This document shows, one piece after another, positions 5,050 to 21,261 of a stretch of 34,836 nucleotides of DNA; the stretch's first letter is position 1; each line of letters starts with the position of its first letter. The notes under the pieces were generated by a model. That model was not told the origin of the DNA. It searched no databases and saw only the letters and a program-made list of their open reading frames with translations. Location of the stretch: positions 1 to 34,836 of the forward strand of contig JAPSGI010000022.1 in the NCBI GenBank assembly GCA_031177685.1, read 5' to 3'. Source of the stretch: Solirubrobacteraceae bacterium (lineage in GTDB: Bacteria; Actinomycetota; Thermoleophilia; Solirubrobacterales; Solirubrobacteraceae). Position numbers and translations under genes: made by a program.

Positions 5050-6258
5050 CTACTTGATCTCGTCGTAGACCTTGAACATCGGCAGGTACATCGAGATCAC
5101 GATGAACCCGACCATGCCGCCCACGACGATGATCATCGCCGGCTCGAGGATCGAGGTGATCGCCTTGACGGCGGCCTCGACCTCGGCCTCGTAGAAGTCC
5201 GCGACCTTGCCGAGCATCGTGTCCAGGGCGCCGGTCTCCTCGCCGACCGCGATCATGTCCACGACCATCGCCGGGAACACGGGGACGTCCTTGAGCGGCG
5301 CCGCGATCGTGCCTCCGCGCTTGACGGACTCCGTCACGTCGGCCATCGACTTCTCGATCACGTCGTTGCCGGCCGTCTGGCCGGTGATCTCGATCGCGGA
5401 CAGGATCGGCACGCCCGAGGACACCAGCGCGGAGAACGTTCGCGACCAACGCGCCAGGGCGATCTTCTGCACCGTGTCGCCGATCTTCAGCGGGACGCGC
5501 AGCTTGAAACGGTCCCACTGGGGCCGGCCCCACGACGACTTCTTCCACGCGAAGAACGACCAGACGAGGGCGGCGAAGACGGCGAGGCACAGGTACCAGC
5601 GGCCGGTCAGGAAGTCCGACGCGCCCACCGTGAGCTTGGTCAGGGCGGGCAGCTCGCCGTCGAACTCCTCGAAGATCTTCGCGAACACCGGCACGATGAA
5701 CGCGACCAGGGCGAGCATCACCGCCGAGGCGAACGTCACGACCACCGCCGGGTAGACCATCGCGGCCCGGACCTGGCGGCGCAGCGCGTCCTCCTTCTCC
5801 AGCTGGTCGGCGATCCGCAGCAGCGACTCCTCGAGCAGCCCGCCGGTCTCCCCGGCGCGGATCATCGAGACGAAGAGCGGACCGAACACCTTGGGATGGC
5901 GGGCCAGCGCGTCGGACAGCGGCAGGCCCGCCTCGACGTCCTTGCGCACCGCCACGAGCGTCTCGCGCAGCAGCTTGGCCTGCGTCTGCGCCTCGAGCAC
6001 GTTCAGCGCCCGCAGGATCGTCATGCCCGACGAGATCATCGTCGAGAGCTGGCGCGTCATGATCGCCAGGTCGCGCAGCTTGACCCGCTGCAGGAAGTCG
6101 ATGTTGAGGTCCTTGGACTTCGACTTGGCGTCGATGTCCAGGACGATCAGCCCGCGCTCCTTGAGCTGCTGGGTGACGGCCTGCTTGGAGTCCGCCTCGA
6201 CCTCGCCGCGCGCCGGGGCGCCGGTGAGGTCCATCGCCTTGAAGACGTAGGTCTCCAT
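5050..6258 (-). CDS. pilC: Type IV pilus inner-membrane platform protein PilC
   Basis: PilC (GspF superfamily) is the polytopic platform that couples the pilus motor ATPases to pilin assembly. At 402 residues it has the usual length. The N-terminus has the typical YVFKAMDLTG...GEVEADS start. Two GspF domains follow, each beginning near ITRQLS/ALARWSRTFSALVSSGVPI, with the family pattern MIRAGETGG / MIAVGEETGAL. Transmembrane segments are visible around residues 170-190, 220-235 and 375-395 (IIVVGGMVGFIVISMYLPMF). It starts only 6 nt after the pilT stop and ends the pil cluster, 14 nt from the convergent DyP stop. Assembly proteins PilM/N/O and the prepilin peptidase are not in the window. Confidence 0.95.
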   Translation of the reverse strand: METYVFKAMDLTGAPARGEVEADSKQAVTQQLKERGLIVLDIDAKSKSKDLNIDFLQRVKLRDLAIMTRQLSTMISSGMTILRALNVLEAQTQAKLLRETLVAVRKDVEAGLPLSDALARHPKVFGPLFVSMIRAGETGGLLEESLLRIADQLEKEDALRRQVRAAMVYPAVVVTFASAVMLALVAFIVPVFAKIFEEFDGELPALTKLTVGASDFLTGRWYLCLAVFAALVWSFFAWKKSSWGRPQWDRFKLRVPLKIGDTVQKIALARWSRTFSALVSSGVPILSAIEITGQTAGNDVIEKSMADVTESVKRGGTIAAPLKDVPVFPAMVVDMIAVGEETGALDTMLGKVADFYEAEVEAAVKAITSILEPAMIIVVGGMVGFIVISMYLPMFKVYDEIK

Positions 6259-14852: not shown

Positions 14853-14922
14853 GCGATCGAGAGTCTAGGTCGGCGCGATCGTGGCGGCGCGGCACCCGCG
14901 CGGCACGATTAGCCTGGACCCG

Positions 14923-16428
14923 GTGCGCCGCCGCCTCATCTGGCTGCCCGCCGCGCTCATCCTGCTGGTGCCCGCGGCGCCCGCCGCCGCGCGCTACCCG
15001 TGGCGGCCGATCGAGGAAGCCGCGTTCGGCGACCCGGGGAATCGCGGCGTCGTCGCCCTGGAGGCGTTCGGCAGCCGGCTGTTCGCGGGGACGGAGCGCT
15101 GGGGCGGCAGCGGCCCGGCGCAGCTGTGGACTAGCGCGTCGGGCGAGCCGCGCTCCTGGACGCGGGTCGGCGACCTGCGCCCGCCGCCGCCGGCCTCGGC
15201 CACCGCGATCTCGGCGCTGGCCGGCGCGCCGGGGGGTCCGCTCTTCCTCGGCACCGCCGACCCCGCCGGCGCCGCGGTGTACCGGTCCGGCGACGGCGTC
15301 ACCTGGGAACTGGCCACCGGCCCCGGAAGCGGGTGGCTCCCGGCGCGCGCGCTCGCGGTCAGCGCGCTGGCCGTGCACGGCGGCGCCGTCTACGCCGGCA
15401 CGCGCCACCCGCGCGGCGGCGCGCTGTGGCGCGCACCACTGACGGGCGGGCGGTTCGAGCGGGTGCTGGCCTTCGGCGGGCGCCGCGCGGTCACCGATGC
15501 GGTGACCGCGCTCCAGCGCTTCCGCGGCCATCTGTACGCCGGCACCCACCGGACGGCCGGCAACGGGCGCCTGTGGCGCTCAGCCAGCGGCGCGCCCGGA
15601 ACCTGGCGCGCCGTGCGCGTCCACGATCGCGGTCGGGTTCGTCCCGGCAACGTCACGATGGGCTCCGCGCTCGCCGTGTTCGAGGGCGCGCTGCACGTCG
15701 CCACGCGCAACCCGCGCTTCGGGGCCGAGCTGTACCGCACGCGCGACGGGCGGCGCTGGAGCGTCGCAACGTACGCGGGAATCCCGGGCGCCGAGCGGCG
15801 CCACGAGGAGATCCACGACTTCGCGCGGACCTTCGATTACCTGTGGATGATCGAGGCCGTGGGGCTGGCGCGGGTATGGCGAGCGCAATCCCACGAGCTG
15901 TCCCCAGGCGAGATCTCTTTGGGCTTCCATCAGACGAACGACGACGGGTTCGGCCGGCGCACGATCCGCGGCGGCCTGCCGGTGGTGGCGGCCTTCCGCG
16001 ACGCCGTCTACTGGGGCGGGCGCGACACGGTGCACGGGGCGCAGGTGTGGCGGGTGGGCCAAGCGGACATCGACCGCTTCGATGGCATCGGCCCCGGCGT
16101 TCGCTTCGCCCCCGGGCCCCTGAGGCTCGCGCCCGGCGGGGTGGTGGCGGTGACGATCCGCTGCCCGCGGGAGGACCCGAACGGATGCCGCGGCCAGCTG
16201 ACCGTGCGCACCCACGGAATCTTCCGAATCGGCGCGGTCCGCCGGCGCATCCTCATCGGCCGGAAGATCTTCGAGATGGACGCCGGCCGCTCGCTCACCC
16301 TGCGCTTCCGCGTACCCGCCGCCGAGCGCCGGGTGCTGCGGCGACTGGGCCGCGTCGGGGTGCGCGCCCGCAGCCTCGAACTGGACAACGCGCACGACAG
16401 CGTCGCGGACTACGTCCTGGAGGCGTGA
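14923..16428 (+). CDS. Secreted beta-propeller-like protein
   Basis: I do not recognise a named family. From GTG 14923 the protein begins with an excellent signal peptide (RRRLIWLPAALILLVPAAPAAA). The body repeats the pattern 'hydrophobic strand-FAGT/YAGT-x-LWRS': RLFAGTERWGGSGPAQLW, AVYAGTRHPRGGALWRA, HLYAGTHRTAGNGRLWRS, ALHVATRNPRFGAELYRT and AVYWGGRDTVHGAQVWRV. About five to six such blades suggest a beta-propeller like those in BNR/sialidase-type or PQQ-like proteins, but the Asp-box is not clear. The last 110 residues resemble the basic C-terminal domain found on other secreted proteins here. An in-frame GTG at 14881 gives a 14-residue longer version that buries the signal peptide. The stop lies 3 nt before the convergent mnmA stop. 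Confidence 0.75.
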   Translation: MRRRLIWLPAALILLVPAAPAAARYPWRPIEEAAFGDPGNRGVVALEAFGSRLFAGTERWGGSGPAQLWTSASGEPRSWTRVGDLRPPPPASATAISALAGAPGGPLFLGTADPAGAAVYRSGDGVTWELATGPGSGWLPARALAVSALAVHGGAVYAGTRHPRGGALWRAPLTGGRFERVLAFGGRRAVTDAVTALQRFRGHLYAGTHRTAGNGRLWRSASGAPGTWRAVRVHDRGRVRPGNVTMGSALAVFEGALHVATRNPRFGAELYRTRDGRRWSVATYAGIPGAERRHEEIHDFARTFDYLWMIEAVGLARVWRAQSHELSPGEISLGFHQTNDDGFGRRTIRGGLPVVAAFRDAVYWGGRDTVHGAQVWRVGQADIDRFDGIGPGVRFAPGPLRLAPGGVVAVTIRCPREDPNGCRGQLTVRTHGIFRIGAVRRRILIGRKIFEMDAGRSLTLRFRVPAAERRVLRRLGRVGVRARSLELDNAHDSVADYVLEA

Positions 16429-16431
16429 GCG

Positions 16432-17871
16432 TCAGGCGGCGACCGTCGCGTGGCCGACGACGAGGTCGCCGTCGAGGAACACCGCGGTCTGCCCGGGCGC
16501 GGCGCCGAGCACCGGCTCGTGCAGGTCGACCCGCAGCCGCGCGTGGCGCCCCGCGGCCGGCGTCCCCTCGATGCCCGCGGCCAGGGGCTTGGACCGGTAG
16601 CGCAGCTTCACCGAGTCCACCCGGCTCGCGTCGCGGCGCAGCACCGCGCCGCGCACGTCGACCCGCGTGCGTCGCAGCTCCTCGCGCGAGCCCACGACCA
16701 CGCGGTTGGCGCGGGCGTCGGTCTCCAGCACGTACAGCGGCGCGGTGGCGGCGACGCCCAGGCCCTTGCGCTGGCCGACGGTGTACCCGTGGTGCCCGCG
16801 GTGGCGGCCCAGGACGCGGCCGCCGCGGTCGACGATGTCGCCGGGGAGCTCGCGCGGGCCGCCATGGCGGCGCAGGAACGCCGCGCGGTCGGTGCCGGCG
16901 AGGAAGCACAGGTCCTGCGAGTCGGGCCGTCGCGCGACGGGCAGACCGGCCTCGGCCGCGAGCTCGCGGACCTGCGGCTTGCGCAGGTCGCCCAGCGGAA
17001 AGCGCATGCCGGCCAGCGTCTCGGGCGACATGGCGGCCAGCATGTAGCTCTGGTCCTTGGCCGGGTCGGCGGCGGCGCGCAGCAGCAACCCGTCCGCGTC
17101 GCCGGCGATCCGCGCGTAGTGACCGGTCGCGAGCTTGTCCGCGCCCACACGTCCGGCCAGCTCGAGCATCGCGTCCAGCCGCACGTGGCCGTTGCAGCGG
17201 ATGCAGGGATTCGGGGTCAGACCGCCGGCGTGGTCCTCGACGAACGGGTCGACGACGCCGGCGCGGAACTCCTCGCGCAGGTCCAGCGTGAGGTGCGGGA
17301 GGCCCATCCGCCGCGCCAGCGCCCGCGCGCCGCGGACCGCCGCCGCGGAGCAGCACGATCGCTCGCCGTCGTTCTCCGGGTCGGCCCAGAGCTCGAGCGT
17401 GACGGCGACGACGTCGTCGGAGGTCGCGCACAGGAGGGCCGCGACGGCGCTGTCCACTCCGCCGCTCATCGCGACGAGCGTGCGGCCCGGGGCCAGGCGC
17501 GCGTTTGCGTCGGCGCGGACGGCGGCGCCGAGGGCGCGTGCGAGCGCGTCGGCGGCCAGCTCGGCCGCGTGGCGCTTGGCGGGGTGCAGGCCGTCGAGCT
17601 CGGTCGAGATCTCGTCGGGTCCCACGCGGGCGGCGTCGAGCACACTCGCGCCGCAGGTGAGCGCCACCGCCGCGCTGCCGGCGGCCAGCGCCGCGCCGCA
17701 GCCGTGCCCGTCGAAGGAGGCCGCCGCGACGCGATCGCCCTCGACCGCCACGGTGATCCGGACCAGGTCGCCGCACGCGGCGCCGCCGGCGGCGCCGCTG
17801 TAGCCACCGCGCACGGGCTCGCCCCGGCCCACCGGCGCGTCGAGATGCTCCTGAAATCCGCGCGGTTCCAT
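16432..17871 (-). CDS. mnmA: tRNA-specific 2-thiouridylase MnmA with N-terminal IscU-like domain
   Basis: MnmA adds the 2-thio group to U34 of tRNA-Lys, -Glu and -Gln. Residues about 115-479 are a normal MnmA: PP-loop SGGVDS at 136-141, NPCIRCN with Cys223 and Cys226 (226 aligns with the E. coli catalytic Cys), TGHYARI, KDQSYML and SQDLCFL with Cys322. Residues about 23-114 instead match the Fe-S scaffold IscU/NifU-N: GAACGDLVRI (Cys33, Asp35), FDGHGCGAALAAGS (Cys58) and HPAKRHAAELAADAL. The third scaffold Cys is replaced by Ala102 after the conserved His101. An extra Cys73 is present. The frame is continuous, so the fusion is real in this sequence. The domain order suggests that an Fe-S or sulfur-handling module is wired to the thiolase. 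Confidence 0.93.
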   Translation of the reverse strand: MEPRGFQEHLDAPVGRGEPVRGGYSGAAGGAACGDLVRITVAVEGDRVAAASFDGHGCGAALAAGSAAVALTCGASVLDAARVGPDEISTELDGLHPAKRHAAELAADALARALGAAVRADANARLAPGRTLVAMSGGVDSAVAALLCATSDDVVAVTLELWADPENDGERSCCSAAAVRGARALARRMGLPHLTLDLREEFRAGVVDPFVEDHAGGLTPNPCIRCNGHVRLDAMLELAGRVGADKLATGHYARIAGDADGLLLRAAADPAKDQSYMLAAMSPETLAGMRFPLGDLRKPQVRELAAEAGLPVARRPDSQDLCFLAGTDRAAFLRRHGGPRELPGDIVDRGGRVLGRHRGHHGYTVGQRKGLGVAATAPLYVLETDARANRVVVGSREELRRTRVDVRGAVLRRDASRVDSVKLRYRSKPLAAGIEGTPAAGRHARLRVDLHEPVLGAAPGQTAVFLDGDLVVGHATVAA

Positions 17872-17963: not shown

Positions 17964-20009
17964 CTAGCGGGTGCGCAGGCGGGTGCGGCGGGTGGCGGTT
18001 GCGGTGCGGCCCTCGCGGTCGACGGCCGCGACCTCGACGGTGACCGCAGTCAGGCCGCGGCGGCCGCGCAGGAGGCGCAGGCCGCGTGCGTTCAGGCTCG
18101 CGTGCACCATCGCGCGACCGCCCGTCACGGGTGCGCGGCCGGACGCGATCTCCACGCCGCGCCGCACGACGCGTACCGCGCACGCGCGCAGGTCGGTCCC
18201 GGCGGCGCGGCAGCCGAACTGCATCCGCCCCCGGCGGACCTTCGAGTGCGAGCCGAGGATCGCCCGCACGGTCAGGGGCGCGGCGCGCGACCCCACCCAG
18301 ATCGGGCTCGAGACCGTCTCGATGGCGGTCCCGCGCATCAGCTGGAGGCGGTAGCGCCCCGGGCCGGCGCCCGCCAGCGACAGCGTCGCCTCGGAGCCGA
18401 CCACGGGCTGAGTCCGGATCACCTCGCGACCGCGCAGCAGCTGCAGCTCGTACGGCCCCCGCTCCCCGGCGTTCAGCACGCGCGCCACGAGGTCCGCGGC
18501 GGGCGCGTCGACCGTGTCGCCCATGATCGCCACGGGGCGCTGCGGGGCGCCGGGCACCCGCGCCTCGAAGCGCAGGTCCGGTCCGCGCTGGCCGAACAGC
18601 TTCACGTACGTGTGGCCCGCCTCGACGCCGCGCTGGATGCCCCGCTCCGACAGCTCGTCGGCGTAGACGACCGTCGTCGCCTGCCCCACCGGCGCCTGCG
18701 TCACCGGGTCCTCGGTGCGCCCCGCGAGCTGCGAGTCGCTCGAGCCGATCGCGGCCACGTGCCAGCCGGTGTCCAGCACGTCCTCCCAGAAGGAGATGGC
18801 CGTGAGCACGAAGGGGCTGGGACCCGGCTGGCCCGGCGCCGCGTTGAGGCCCGCCACGCCGGTCGCCACCTCGATGCCGTCCACCAGCTCGTAGCGCGTC
18901 TCCTCCGGTGGGTAGTCCCACGGGCAGCCGCGGCAGAAGCCGGCGAAGACGCTCGACGGAAAGATCGTCGGGTGGTTGACCTGCGCGAACCCGCCGGCGC
19001 GGTCGATCTCGGCGAGCACCTCGCGCGGCGGCCGCGGCCCGCGGCGCAGCACCAGGTTGCCGTCCGGACGGCGCTCGTGCACGGGCCCCGTCCGGTAGTC
19101 GACGAAGCGGCCGGTCGCCATGTTGTGGAAGTGGCCGCGGTAGGTGATGACCTCCGCCGCGCGCAGGATCGTCTTGGAGGGATGGCGCGGCTGGTGGCGG
19201 CCGATCTCGCCCCACGCCGCGTCCGTGACGTAGTCCGAGAGGTTCACGAAGTCCAGCCCGGCGCCGCCCTGCGACAGCGGCCGGAACGCGTAGTCGAAGA
19301 CCTCGGTCATCGTCGCGACGCCGAAGCGCGAGTGCTCGGCGTGGACGTGGAAGTCGCCGGCGTACCAGCCGGCCTCGCGGCGCGCCGGACGGCGGTCGTA
19401 GGGCGCCGGGCGGTACGGCTCGTCGGCGTAGGCCCGCTCGCGCGACAGCTCGATCTCCACGCGCCACGCGACCGTCCCGTCGGGGTCGCCCTCGGCTTGC
19501 GAGACGACCGACCCCACTCCCAGCTCGACCGCCCAGGTGCCCGCCGAGATCGGGCCGGGCTTGAACCCGCGCGTGGTCCTCCCGGGCACGCGGCCACGCG
19601 GGGCCGCCCGGTACTCGGCCTCGCTGGAGAACCCCTCCGGCGAGACCGTCACGTCCGGGTGGCTGGAGCCGCCCCAGCCGCGGAACTCCTCGCGCCCCCA
19701 CAGCGCCTGCGGCGACGGCCGCGCCTCGTAGAGCCCGAGGTCGAGCGTGTGGCGCACGCGCTGGGCGACGGGCTCGGGCGGCTGGTCGTAGCAGTACTTC
19801 ACGCGCACGGCCGTCGTCCCCGCGGGGACGTCGAATGGAAGCAGCACGTAGGAGCCCTGCAGCTCGTCCGCGAAGCGGCCCGTGACCACACGGTCGGCCC
19901 GGATCGCGTCGCCCGGACACGAGACGGGCGCCTGGGCCGAGGCGTCAGCGGCCGCGACGGCCAGCGTCGCGAGCGCCGCGGTGGAGATGGCGCGCAGACG
20001 ATCCCCCAC
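17964..20009 (-). CDS. Secreted CehA/McbA-like PHP-domain metallohydrolase
   Basis: CehA/McbA-type proteins are metal-dependent hydrolases of the PHP fold. From GTG 20009 the protein is 681 residues, starting with a signal peptide (GDRLRAISTAALATLAVAAADASA). A beta-sandwich domain occupies about 25-210. The PHP domain begins at GDFHVHAEHS (residues about 218-227, metal ligands H221, H223 and H226). It continues with VNLSDYVTD, FAQVNHPTIFP (about residue 344) and AAIGSSDSQLAG (about 420). The His expected after GSSDS in active PHP proteins is Gln here, so activity is uncertain. The C-terminal 110 residues resemble the basic Ig-like tail seen on other secreted proteins in this window. The frame extends upstream to 20675, but that part is Arg-rich shadow over another gene. 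Confidence 0.8.
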   Translation of the reverse strand: MGDRLRAISTAALATLAVAAADASAQAPVSCPGDAIRADRVVTGRFADELQGSYVLLPFDVPAGTTAVRVKYCYDQPPEPVAQRVRHTLDLGLYEARPSPQALWGREEFRGWGGSSHPDVTVSPEGFSSEAEYRAAPRGRVPGRTTRGFKPGPISAGTWAVELGVGSVVSQAEGDPDGTVAWRVEIELSRERAYADEPYRPAPYDRRPARREAGWYAGDFHVHAEHSRFGVATMTEVFDYAFRPLSQGGAGLDFVNLSDYVTDAAWGEIGRHQPRHPSKTILRAAEVITYRGHFHNMATGRFVDYRTGPVHERRPDGNLVLRRGPRPPREVLAEIDRAGGFAQVNHPTIFPSSVFAGFCRGCPWDYPPEETRYELVDGIEVATGVAGLNAAPGQPGPSPFVLTAISFWEDVLDTGWHVAAIGSSDSQLAGRTEDPVTQAPVGQATTVVYADELSERGIQRGVEAGHTYVKLFGQRGPDLRFEARVPGAPQRPVAIMGDTVDAPAADLVARVLNAGERGPYELQLLRGREVIRTQPVVGSEATLSLAGAGPGRYRLQLMRGTAIETVSSPIWVGSRAAPLTVRAILGSHSKVRRGRMQFGCRAAGTDLRACAVRVVRRGVEIASGRAPVTGGRAMVHASLNARGLRLLRGRRGLTAVTVEVAAVDREGRTATATRRTRLRTR

Positions 20010-20056
20010 GTTCCCGAGGATAGGCCCGCCGGATGGCGACCGGCGCAGTCGCGCCG

Positions 20057-20305
20057 TTACTCCCCGTAGGGGTCGGAGTCCGCGGTGTCGTCGGGCTCGC
20101 CGACGGGATTGTTGAGCTGGTGGTGGGGATCGCGGTCCGTCTCGGCGGCGCGCGGCTCGCCCGCCCCCGGCTCGTGGACCGGTCCGGGGTCCGCCTCGTC
20201 GCGCTCCTTGCGCTCCAGCGGGCGCCCCGCCGCCTCGGCCTCGTCGTGCGGGCGCTCGTTGTGGTCCTCGGTCTCGCGGAGATGCTGGCTTATGCGATCG
20301 GCCAT
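20057..20305 (-). CDS. Small acidic hydrophilic protein (82 aa)
   Basis: The 82-residue protein has no hydrophobic segment and is dominated by Glu, Asp, Pro, Arg and His (for example ETEDHNERPHDEAEAAG and PVGEPDDTADSDPYGE). It is probably intrinsically disordered. The composition is unlike the Arg/Ala-rich shadow frames and the ATG is well placed, 44 bp from the divergent dehydrogenase. The stop lies 47 bp before the cehA-like start. Function is unknown. Confidence 0.6.
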   Translation of the reverse strand: MADRISQHLRETEDHNERPHDEAEAAGRPLERKERDEADPGPVHEPGAGEPRAAETDRDPHHQLNNPVGEPDDTADSDPYGE

Positions 20306-20349
20306 GGCGTTGGCCTACCCGTGCGGGGCGCGCCGTACTCTCCCGCGCG

Positions 20350-21261
20350 ATGTCCGCGCGCATCTCAGCCTGGATTCCCGAGCCGGCCGACCTCGAGGGC
20401 GCGCCGGCGCAGGTAGACCTGCACGCGATCCCGCGCGAGGGCCCCCTGCCGCCCGCCTTCCACGACGCCGAGTTCGTCGTTCCGCCCCACGGCAGCCGCC
20501 GCGTGCTGGACGCGCTCCCCGACATGCCGCGGCTGCGTGTCGTCCAGGCGCTGTCCGCAGGCGTGGAGTGGCTGCTTGCGCACGTCCCGCCGAGCGTGAC
20601 GGTGTGCACGGCGCGCGGCGCGTACGACGTCGCCGTGGCCGAGTGGGTGGTGGCGGGCGTGCTCGCCGACGCCAAGCGCCTCGCGCAGTTCCGCGATCGC
20701 CAGCGCGAGCGCCGCTGGGAGCCGGCCCTGCTGGACGAGGTGGCGGGCCGTCATGCGCTGATCGTCGGCTGCGGCTCTATCGGCCGCGCGGTCGCGCGGC
20801 GCCTGGAGGCGCTCGGAGTCTCGATCCAGGGTGTCGCCCGGCGTGCCCGTCCCGGCGTGGCGGCCACGGCGCAGCTGCCGGACCTCCTCCCCGCCGCCGA
20901 CTTCGTAATCGTGCTCGTCCCCCACACGCCCGAGACGGCGCGGCTCTTCGACGCCGGGACGCTGGACCGGATGAAGCCCGGCGCCCTGCTCGTCAACGCC
21001 GCGCGCGGCGCCGTGGTCGACACCGGCGCGCTGCTCGAGCGCCTGCGGTCGGGTCGCCTGCGCGCCGTCCTCGACGTCACCGACCCCGAGCCGCTGCCGC
21101 CCGACCACCCGCTGTGGGACGCGCCCGGCGTGACGATCACGCCCCACGCCGCCGGCGACACGCCCGCGGGCGAACGCCGCGCCCGCGAGCTGCTCGCCGC
21201 CCAGCTGCGCCGCTACGCCGCCGGCGAGCCGCTCGCCAACGTCGTCGCCGACGGCTACTGA
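20350..21261 (+). CDS. D-isomer-specific 2-hydroxyacid dehydrogenase
   Basis: This NAD(P)-dependent oxidoreductase of the D-2-hydroxyacid dehydrogenase family is 303 residues long. The nucleotide-binding turn is VGCGSIGRAVARRL (about 136-149). Catalytic Arg lies in NAARGAVVDTGAL, Glu in DVTDPEPLPPDHPLW and His in VTITPHAAGDTP, the expected Arg-Glu-His set. The substrate (phosphoglycerate, glyoxylate, lactate or other) cannot be deduced; the short N-terminal domain favours the glyoxylate/hydroxypyruvate-type group over SerA, and there is no ACT domain. It is monocistronic between the divergent small acidic gene and the convergent amt gene, whose stop is 6 nt away. Confidence 0.9.
   Translation: MSARISAWIPEPADLEGAPAQVDLHAIPREGPLPPAFHDAEFVVPPHGSRRVLDALPDMPRLRVVQALSAGVEWLLAHVPPSVTVCTARGAYDVAVAEWVVAGVLADAKRLAQFRDRQRERRWEPALLDEVAGRHALIVGCGSIGRAVARRLEALGVSIQGVARRARPGVAATAQLPDLLPAADFVIVLVPHTPETARLFDAGTLDRMKPGALLVNAARGAVVDTGALLERLRSGRLRAVLDVTDPEPLPPDHPLWDAPGVTITPHAAGDTPAGERRARELLAAQLRRYAAGEPLANVVADGY

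What the first reader, a model, noticed from the sequence alone, without database searches (positions are those of the whole stretch)
16432..17871. IscU-like scaffold domain fused to the tRNA thiolase MnmA, with the third scaffold Cys lost
Residues 23-114 match IscU/NifU-N (CGD, GHGCG, the region aligned to LHC), but the last Cys is Ala102. The MnmA part carries CxxC (223/226) plus Cys322, a set compatible with an Fe-S cluster as well as with persulfide chemistry. A physical fusion suggests that cluster or sulfur delivery to MnmA occurs within one chain, bypassing a relay. The missing Cys argues for a specialised docking or transfer role rather than full scaffolding.
Basis: partly seen in the sequence, partly recalled or inferred. 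Interest (0 to 1): 0.65.

Follow-up and report, generated by a model that had tools for sequence, protein, structure and literature searches.

The report
Scaffold domain fused to tRNA thiolase
In several lineages of soil and deep-branching actinobacteria the enzyme that puts sulfur on tRNA (MnmA) carries a built-in copy of the iron-sulfur scaffold protein IscU whose active site has been pared down, which suggests that a cluster-building protein was turned into a private sulfur-docking or relay module.

Summary
The ORF (479 aa, minus strand, 16432-17871) is a real NifU_N/IscU-MnmA fusion. It is not an assembly error: it is fixed across the window's order (Solirubrobacterales-like; 69/69 distinct sequences read) and found in most Thermoleophilia families, a Rubrobacteria-like family and a few other deep actinobacterial families. 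Unfused relatives have an iscS-iscU-mnmA(-alaS) operon whose IscU keeps all five assembly-site residues (Cys, Asp, Cys, His, Cys). Fused domains that keep the first three retain exactly one of the last two: His without Cys (window's order, CDCH-Ala, 69/69) or Cys without His. Elsewhere the site decays further, to a Cys-free remnant in one family. The window's genome has no IscS, TusA or SufE, only SufS/SufU/SufBCD. The MnmA half is C-type (CC-CxxC-C), the type shown to be [4Fe-4S]-dependent in Thermus. By the ISCU literature the retained C33/D35/C58/H101 are the mononuclear metal site and the lost Cys is the persulfide receptor, so the domain should not be a standard scaffold. Best reading: an in-cis desulfurase-docking/persulfide-relay domain (inferred, not shown). 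Closest precedent: the SufE-like domain on apicomplexan MnmA. I found no paper on the bacterial fusion.

The parts
16432..17871 (-). fused NifU_N/IscU-like + MnmA gene (479 aa; stop codon 16432-16434)
17527..17850 (-). NifU_N/IscU-like domain (residues 8-115)
   Evidence: Pfam 71-74 bits, cut-off 22; IscU fold in AF2 model; omega 0.05-0.23 between close relatives
17773..17775 (-). C33, equivalent to E. coli IscU C37 / SufU acceptor Cys
   Evidence: 69/69 in the order
17767..17769 (-). D35, equivalent to IscU D39
   Evidence: 69/69
17698..17700 (-). C58, equivalent to IscU C63
   Evidence: 69/69
17569..17571 (-). H101, equivalent to IscU H105
   Evidence: 69/69
17566..17568 (-). A102 in place of the third scaffold Cys (IscU C106, persulfide receptor)
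   Evidence: Ala 69/69 in the order
17482..17526 (-). short junction (residues 116-130); the last IscU helix (97-121) runs almost directly into MnmA
   Evidence: 20-28 residues between L114 and the P-loop in most fusions
16897..17481 (-). MnmA HUP/PP-loop catalytic domain (residues 131-325; SGGVDS)
   Evidence: Pfam PF03054
17350..17355 (-). C173-C174, the CC motif of C-type MnmA
   Evidence: 83/84; motif definition PMC11784392
17194..17205 (-). C223xxC226
   Evidence: 84/84
16906..16908 (-). C322, equivalent to catalytic Cys199 of E. coli MnmA
   Evidence: 84/84
16687..16881 (-). MnmA PRC-barrel middle domain
   Evidence: PF20259
16441..16614 (-). MnmA C-terminal beta-barrel
   Evidence: PF20258
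12222..14852 (-). alaS, downstream neighbour of mnmA in most relatives; remnant of the iscS-iscU-mnmA-alaS neighbourhood
   Evidence: TIGR00344 845 bits; synteny

Best explanation
The gene encodes a C-type MnmA with an IscU-derived domain fused at its N-terminus. Shown: the two were neighbouring genes of an iscS-iscU-mnmA(-alaS) operon that became one gene; the domain is predicted to fold and is under purifying selection; it keeps the mononuclear metal-site residues C33/D35/C58/H101 and has a fixed Ala where IscU has its persulfide-receptor Cys; this genome's only recognised cysteine desulfurase is SufS. Inferred: the domain no longer builds Fe-S clusters but acts in cis as a docking and persulfide-relay module. 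A metal (Zn or Fe) is held by C33, D35, C58 and H101; the desulfurase (SufS here, adjacent IscS in other families) docks on the domain and hands sulfur to C33 by metal-ligand exchange as in SufU, or presents its own persulfide there; the sulfur then moves to the MnmA cysteines (C322, or a [4Fe-4S] cluster on C223/C226/C322) for thiolation of U34. It would replace a separate relay such as TusA.
For: Operon order iscS-iscU-mnmA in f6, f29 and clostridia, and iscS immediately upstream of the fusion in f10, f11 and f23. In three f29 genomes nifU and mnmA lie in frame with one stop between them. Fused domains with C-D-C keep exactly one of H105/C106, 59/59, against both in 13/15 unfused; the two exceptions, L169 and L189, look like recent splits inside fused families. 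Literature: Fe2+/Zn2+ in ISCU is held by Cys35, Asp37, Cys61 and His103, while Cys104 is the persulfide receptor (PMC8924461); in SufU the first Cys is the acceptor, freed by Zn-ligand swap to a SufS His (PMC10216065). The resident SufS carries the HPHD and RAGHHC motifs of that type (sequence; motif assignment from memory). No IscS, TusA or SufE here. Purifying selection on the N-domain. IscU fold.
Against: No biochemical data on any of these proteins. The relay cannot be universal: f9 keeps only C33 and lacks D35 and C58, f12 is similar, f7 has a Cys-free remnant, and two f8 genomes have MnmA without the domain. The His/Cys exclusivity rests on few independent events (about 3 changes each; sign test not significant). 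f23 keeps an adjacent IscS with the third Cys lost, so loss of that Cys does not track loss of IscS. Whether SufS can dock on an IscU-type domain is not known. No coordinates were available to measure the distance between the C33/C58 site and the MnmA active site.
Confidence: 0.45

Rival explanations
1. The domain is a cluster-delivery or repair module that loads the oxygen-sensitive [4Fe-4S] cluster of the C-type MnmA, with C33, D35, C58 and H101 holding a labile Fe site or [2Fe-2S] cluster.
For: MnmA half is C-type and that type is [4Fe-4S]-dependent in Thermus (PMC8584467); four potential ligands remain and are invariant; descent from a true scaffold.
Against: The third Cys, the persulfide receptor, is replaced by an invariant Ala (69/69), so de novo cluster assembly is unlikely. 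MnmA cluster cysteines stay invariant in lineages whose domain has lost the ligands. A general SUF system is present.
Confidence: 0.2
2. The domain has become mainly structural: it packs on MnmA, stabilises it or helps bind tRNA, or only docks the desulfurase, and its metal site (Zn) is a structural relic that is lost in some lineages.
For: Stepwise decay to a Cys-free 70-75-residue remnant in f7 that is still predicted to fold with high confidence; short junction and high pTM suggest a fixed arrangement; f9 and f12 lost most ligands.
Against: In the window's order all four metal-site residues and Ala102 are 100% conserved, more than a structural relic needs; in f10, f11 and f23 the fusion sits directly after iscS.
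Confidence: 0.27
3. Chance or assembly artefact: NifU_N resemblance is spurious or the fusion is a misassembly.
For: None found.
Against: Profile match far above cut-off, fold match, and the same single open frame in more than 100 independent genomes.
Confidence: 0.01

Closest known systems
Apicomplexan (Plasmodium falciparum) MnmA with N-terminal SufE-like domain (PMC10219651)
   Same: A sulfur-relay-fold domain N-terminal to MnmA in a compartment whose desulfurase is SufS; the authors propose that it could take sulfur from SufS and pass it to MnmA. SufE and SufU/IscU share a fold (PMC10216065).
   Different: SufE-like rather than IscU-like (no metal site); D-type MnmA; a eukaryotic organelle; inferred there from a long N-terminal extension.
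C-type (CxxC-C) MnmA, e.g. Thermus thermophilus MnmA
   Same: CC-CxxC-C cysteine set conserved here.
   Different: No fused IscU domain is described for it in the papers read.
IscU / NifU N-terminal scaffold
   Same: Pfam NifU_N, fold, C33/D35/C58/H101, and operon descent with iscS.
   Different: Fused to MnmA; third Cys replaced by invariant Ala.
SufU zinc sulfurtransferase
   Same: Fold, and a four-residue metal site in place of the five residues of IscU; works with SufS.
   Different: Fourth ligand His instead of Cys in the window's order; closer to the NifU/IscU models than to the SufU model; separate SufU also present.
B. subtilis YrvO-MnmA pair
   Same: Desulfurase gene next to mnmA, dedicated to tRNA thiolation (discussed in PMC10219651).
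   Different: No scaffold domain is involved; the window's genome has no YrvO/IscS-type enzyme.

Membership tests
C-type MnmA (tRNA 2-thiouridine(34) synthase) | MnmA profile over its curated cut-off | tested here: met
   PRK00143 338.6 vs 284; TIGR00420 277 vs 237
C-type MnmA (tRNA 2-thiouridine(34) synthase) | PP-loop SGGxDS | tested here: met
   SGGVDS 136-141; S136 G137 G138 D140 S141 invariant
C-type MnmA (tRNA 2-thiouridine(34) synthase) | CC-CxxC-C motif rather than C-DxxC-C | tested here: met
   C173 C174, C223xxC226, C322 (definition)
C-type MnmA (tRNA 2-thiouridine(34) synthase) | [4Fe-4S] cluster and thiolation activity | not testable with these tools
   needs anaerobic purification
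IscU/NifU_N Fe-S scaffold | NifU_N profile over cut-off and IscU fold | tested here: met
   71.3 bits vs 22; 4eb5_C 1.3 A
IscU/NifU_N Fe-S scaffold | three scaffold cysteines (C37, C63, C106 of E. coli IscU) | tested here: not met
   C33, C58, A102; Ala 69/69 in the order
IscU/NifU_N Fe-S scaffold | equivalog-level match to IscU or NifU | tested here: not met
   NifU_clost 64 vs 188; IscU 52 vs 192
SufU zinc sulfurtransferase | four-ligand metal site Cys-Asp-Cys-Cys | tested here: not met
   Cys-Asp-Cys-His here; Cys-Asp-Cys-Cys in fused f8, f10, f11, f55
SufU zinc sulfurtransferase | SufU profile over cut-off | tested here: not met
   TIGR01994 30.6 vs 92.5
SufU zinc sulfurtransferase | zinc binding and persulfide acceptance from SufS | not testable with these tools
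   needs purified proteins
SufE-like-MnmA fusion of Apicomplexa | SufE-type domain | tested here: not met
   the N-domain is NifU_N; no SufE family match in the whole genome

The most novel reading that the evidence does not exclude
After fusion an Fe-S scaffold was repeatedly converted into a built-in metal-dependent sulfurtransferase: losing either the His or the persulfide-receptor Cys of the five-residue IscU site leaves a closed four-ligand metal site. This lets MnmA take sulfur straight from SufS or IscS without Tus-type carriers, and it parallels the SufE-like domain on MnmA in apicomplexan plastids.
Probability: 0.33. Interest if true: 0.75.

Novelty: new variant of a known kind. Interest (0 to 1): 0.58.

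Why it matters
How MnmA receives sulfur, and whether it works by persulfide or through an Fe-S cluster, is disputed (PMC11784392). A naturally fused donor domain with graded natural variants (CDCHC unfused, CDCH-A, CDC-x-C, C-only, none) is a ready-made series to test which chemistry the donor supplies, and it offers a case of a scaffold protein changing function after gene fusion.

Tried and rejected
(1) Loss of the third Cys follows loss of IscS: rejected, because f23 has an adjacent iscS and no third Cys, and f5 and f9 have IscS-type genes elsewhere. (2) C73 as a functional Cys: rejected. (3) Split genes in genus g37 suggested by two-piece matches: single open frames on inspection. (4) Literature search for an IscU/NifU-MnmA fusion in bacteria: nothing found in the library held; only the apicomplexan SufE-like case. 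(5) Structure comparison of the f7 remnant (residues 1-70): the MnmA part filled the list, so its fold was not independently identified. (6) Sign test on independent pairs for fusion against site loss: too few events to reach significance.

Full report
Observation. The minus-strand ORF 16432-17871 encodes 479 aa starting at an ATG. Pfam assigns residues 9-115 to NifU_N (71.3 bits, cut-off 22) and 131-477 to the three MnmA domains; NCBIfam calls the protein MnmA over its curated cut-off, while the N-part matches NifU, IscU and SufU models only below theirs. phmmer against PDB sequences finds MnmA chains and, separately, IscU chains. The AlphaFold2 model is confident throughout (pLDDT 95.1, pTM 0.92) with a long helix 97-121 leading into MnmA. 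Its N-domain matches IscU structures, best A. fulgidus IscU from the IscS-IscU complex at 1.3 A over 110 columns, and the rest matches MnmA. Two details change: C73 is not conserved, and the MnmA half also has C173-C174 (83/84), which with C223xxC226 and C322 (84/84) is the CC-CxxC-C set of C-type MnmA.

Distribution. Families below are the anonymous codes f1... of the genome search. In 399 genomes of the class, full-length matches covering both domains were listed for well over 100 genomes of the window's order (families f1-f4). Named relatives include Solirubrobacter species. Reading the DNA of about 80 loci showed one uninterrupted frame carrying both domains. The fusion also occurs in class families f5, f8, f9, f10, f11, f12, and outside the class in f23 (probably Rubrobacteria, inferred), f55, f73 and some f16. 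In f6 and f29 and in clostridial contigs the genes are separate and adjacent; in three f29 genomes they lie in frame with one stop codon between them.

Origin. In f6 and f29 the order is iscS-iscU-mnmA; in f10, f11 and f23 it is iscS-[iscU~mnmA]; alaS lies downstream of mnmA in many of these loci, as in the window's order. The fusion is therefore a joining of operon neighbours. On a tree of the MnmA part, fused versus separate needs at least five changes, two of them apparently recent splits (L169, L189), so several fusions or fission events took place; the tree is the quick kind and the deep order is not firm.

What changed in the domain. At the positions of E. coli IscU C37/D39/C63/H105/C106, unfused IscU in f6, f29 and the clostridial-type contigs reads C-D-C-H-C (13/13). 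The window's order reads C-D-C-H-A in 69 of 69 distinct sequences, f5 C-D-C-H-G in 7/7, f23 C-D-C-H-A/G. In f10, f11, f55, four of five f8 sequences and one of two f73 sequences the His is gone and the last Cys kept (C-D-C-x-C). Among the fused sequences on the tree with C-D-C intact, 44 keep only the His, 15 only the Cys, none both and none neither. This rests on about three changes of each residue, so it is a pattern and not a statistical proof. Other lineages decay further: f9 keeps C33 but has A/V and S at the next two positions, f12 keeps only C33, two f8 genomes have MnmA without the domain, and f7 (Gaiella-type) has a 70-75-residue Cys-free N-terminal extension that lines up with the strands and the last helix of the domain. 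That f7 extension folds with high confidence in AF2, but no structural search placed it, so calling it a remnant rests on the sequence alignment and on tree position. Between close relatives in the order the N-domain has dN/dS of 0.05-0.23, like the MnmA domains, so it is under purifying selection.

Cell context. The window's genome (3.15 Mb, 97% complete) has one MnmA (the second hit is a short P-loop match), and one SUF locus on contig C29 with an Rrf2-type regulator, SufC, SufD, SufS, SufU and SufB, read from the translations. SufS is confirmed by TIGR01979. No IscS-type desulfurase was found here or in any of 26 sampled genomes of the order: the best matches are at about 30-38% identity and mostly lie next to SufU. 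TusA and SufE are absent from this genome. MnmA must therefore be supplied by SufS directly, by SufU, or by a source not recognised here.

Mechanism. The ISCU literature states that the ferrous or zinc ion is held by Cys35, Asp37, Cys61 and His103, and that Cys104 is the free persulfide receptor (PMC8924461). Mapped here, C33, D35, C58 and H101 are kept and the receptor is replaced by an invariant Ala. The domain can hold a metal but should not take up persulfide in the IscU manner or build a cluster de novo. In SufU, the sulfurtransferase of the same fold, the acceptor is the first Cys (equivalent to C33), released when zinc swaps ligand to a His of SufS, and the Mycobacterium tuberculosis SufU was found not to be a scaffold (PMC10216065). 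A four-ligand site with C33 as acceptor would work in that way. Hence the preferred model: in-cis docking of the desulfurase and relay of sulfur to MnmA. Steps shown by sequence: fusion, descent, retained metal-site residues, lost receptor, SufS-only genome. Steps inferred: metal binding, docking, transfer. The main rival, cluster delivery to the C-type MnmA (a type that is [4Fe-4S]-dependent in Thermus, PMC8584467), is weakened because the MnmA cysteines remain invariant where the domain's ligands are gone. A structural or docking-only role is a serious alternative, given the decayed forms.

Known or new. C-type MnmA, IscU and SufU are known. The nearest precedent for the architecture is the SufE-like domain N-terminal to MnmA in Plasmodium and other apicomplexans, for which the authors suggest relay from SufS to MnmA (PMC10219651). 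I found no paper on the IscU-MnmA fusion in bacteria in the library held; subscription journals are mostly absent from it, so prior mention cannot be excluded. I rate it a new variant of a known kind.

Noticed in passing
L060 (8001-9392), L069 (807-2198): Contigs titled 'MAG: Bifidobacterium breve' carry Solirubrobacterales-type fused MnmA (57-59% identity to the window); the records look misnamed or misbinned.
   Followed up: no
L122 (7156-8352): A contig titled 'Burkholderiales bacterium' MAG carries a Gaiella-type MnmA with the shrunken N-terminal extension and falls inside that group on the tree; probably misbinned.
   Followed up: partly
window 14881-16428 (+): A 515-aa ORF on the opposite strand lies between mnmA and alaS, with no Pfam or NCBIfam match; in many relatives alaS follows mnmA much more closely.
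   Followed up: partly
window 17964-20675 (-): Upstream neighbour matches the CehA/McbA metallohydrolase family (130.6 bits, cut-off 80).
   Followed up: no
L160, L162 (family f8): MnmA without any fused N-domain nested among fused f8 sequences on the tree, suggesting secondary loss of the domain.
   Followed up: partly
L169 and L189: N-domain and MnmA lie in overlapping different frames, in otherwise fused families: either gene fission or frameshift errors.
   Followed up: no
L184-L190 (family f23): The fused domain has an extra conserved Cys three residues after the second scaffold Cys (GCAxCIA), which could alter the metal site.
   Followed up: no
L013 8018-8398 (+), own genome SufU: The resident SufU is short (126 aa) and just under the SufU model cut-off (88.1 vs 92.5); it appears to lack the roughly 21-23-residue insert described for other SufU proteins.
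   Followed up: no
window 5050-6258 (-): T2SSF domain protein (type II secretion / type IV pilus family, 216 bits).
   Followed up: no
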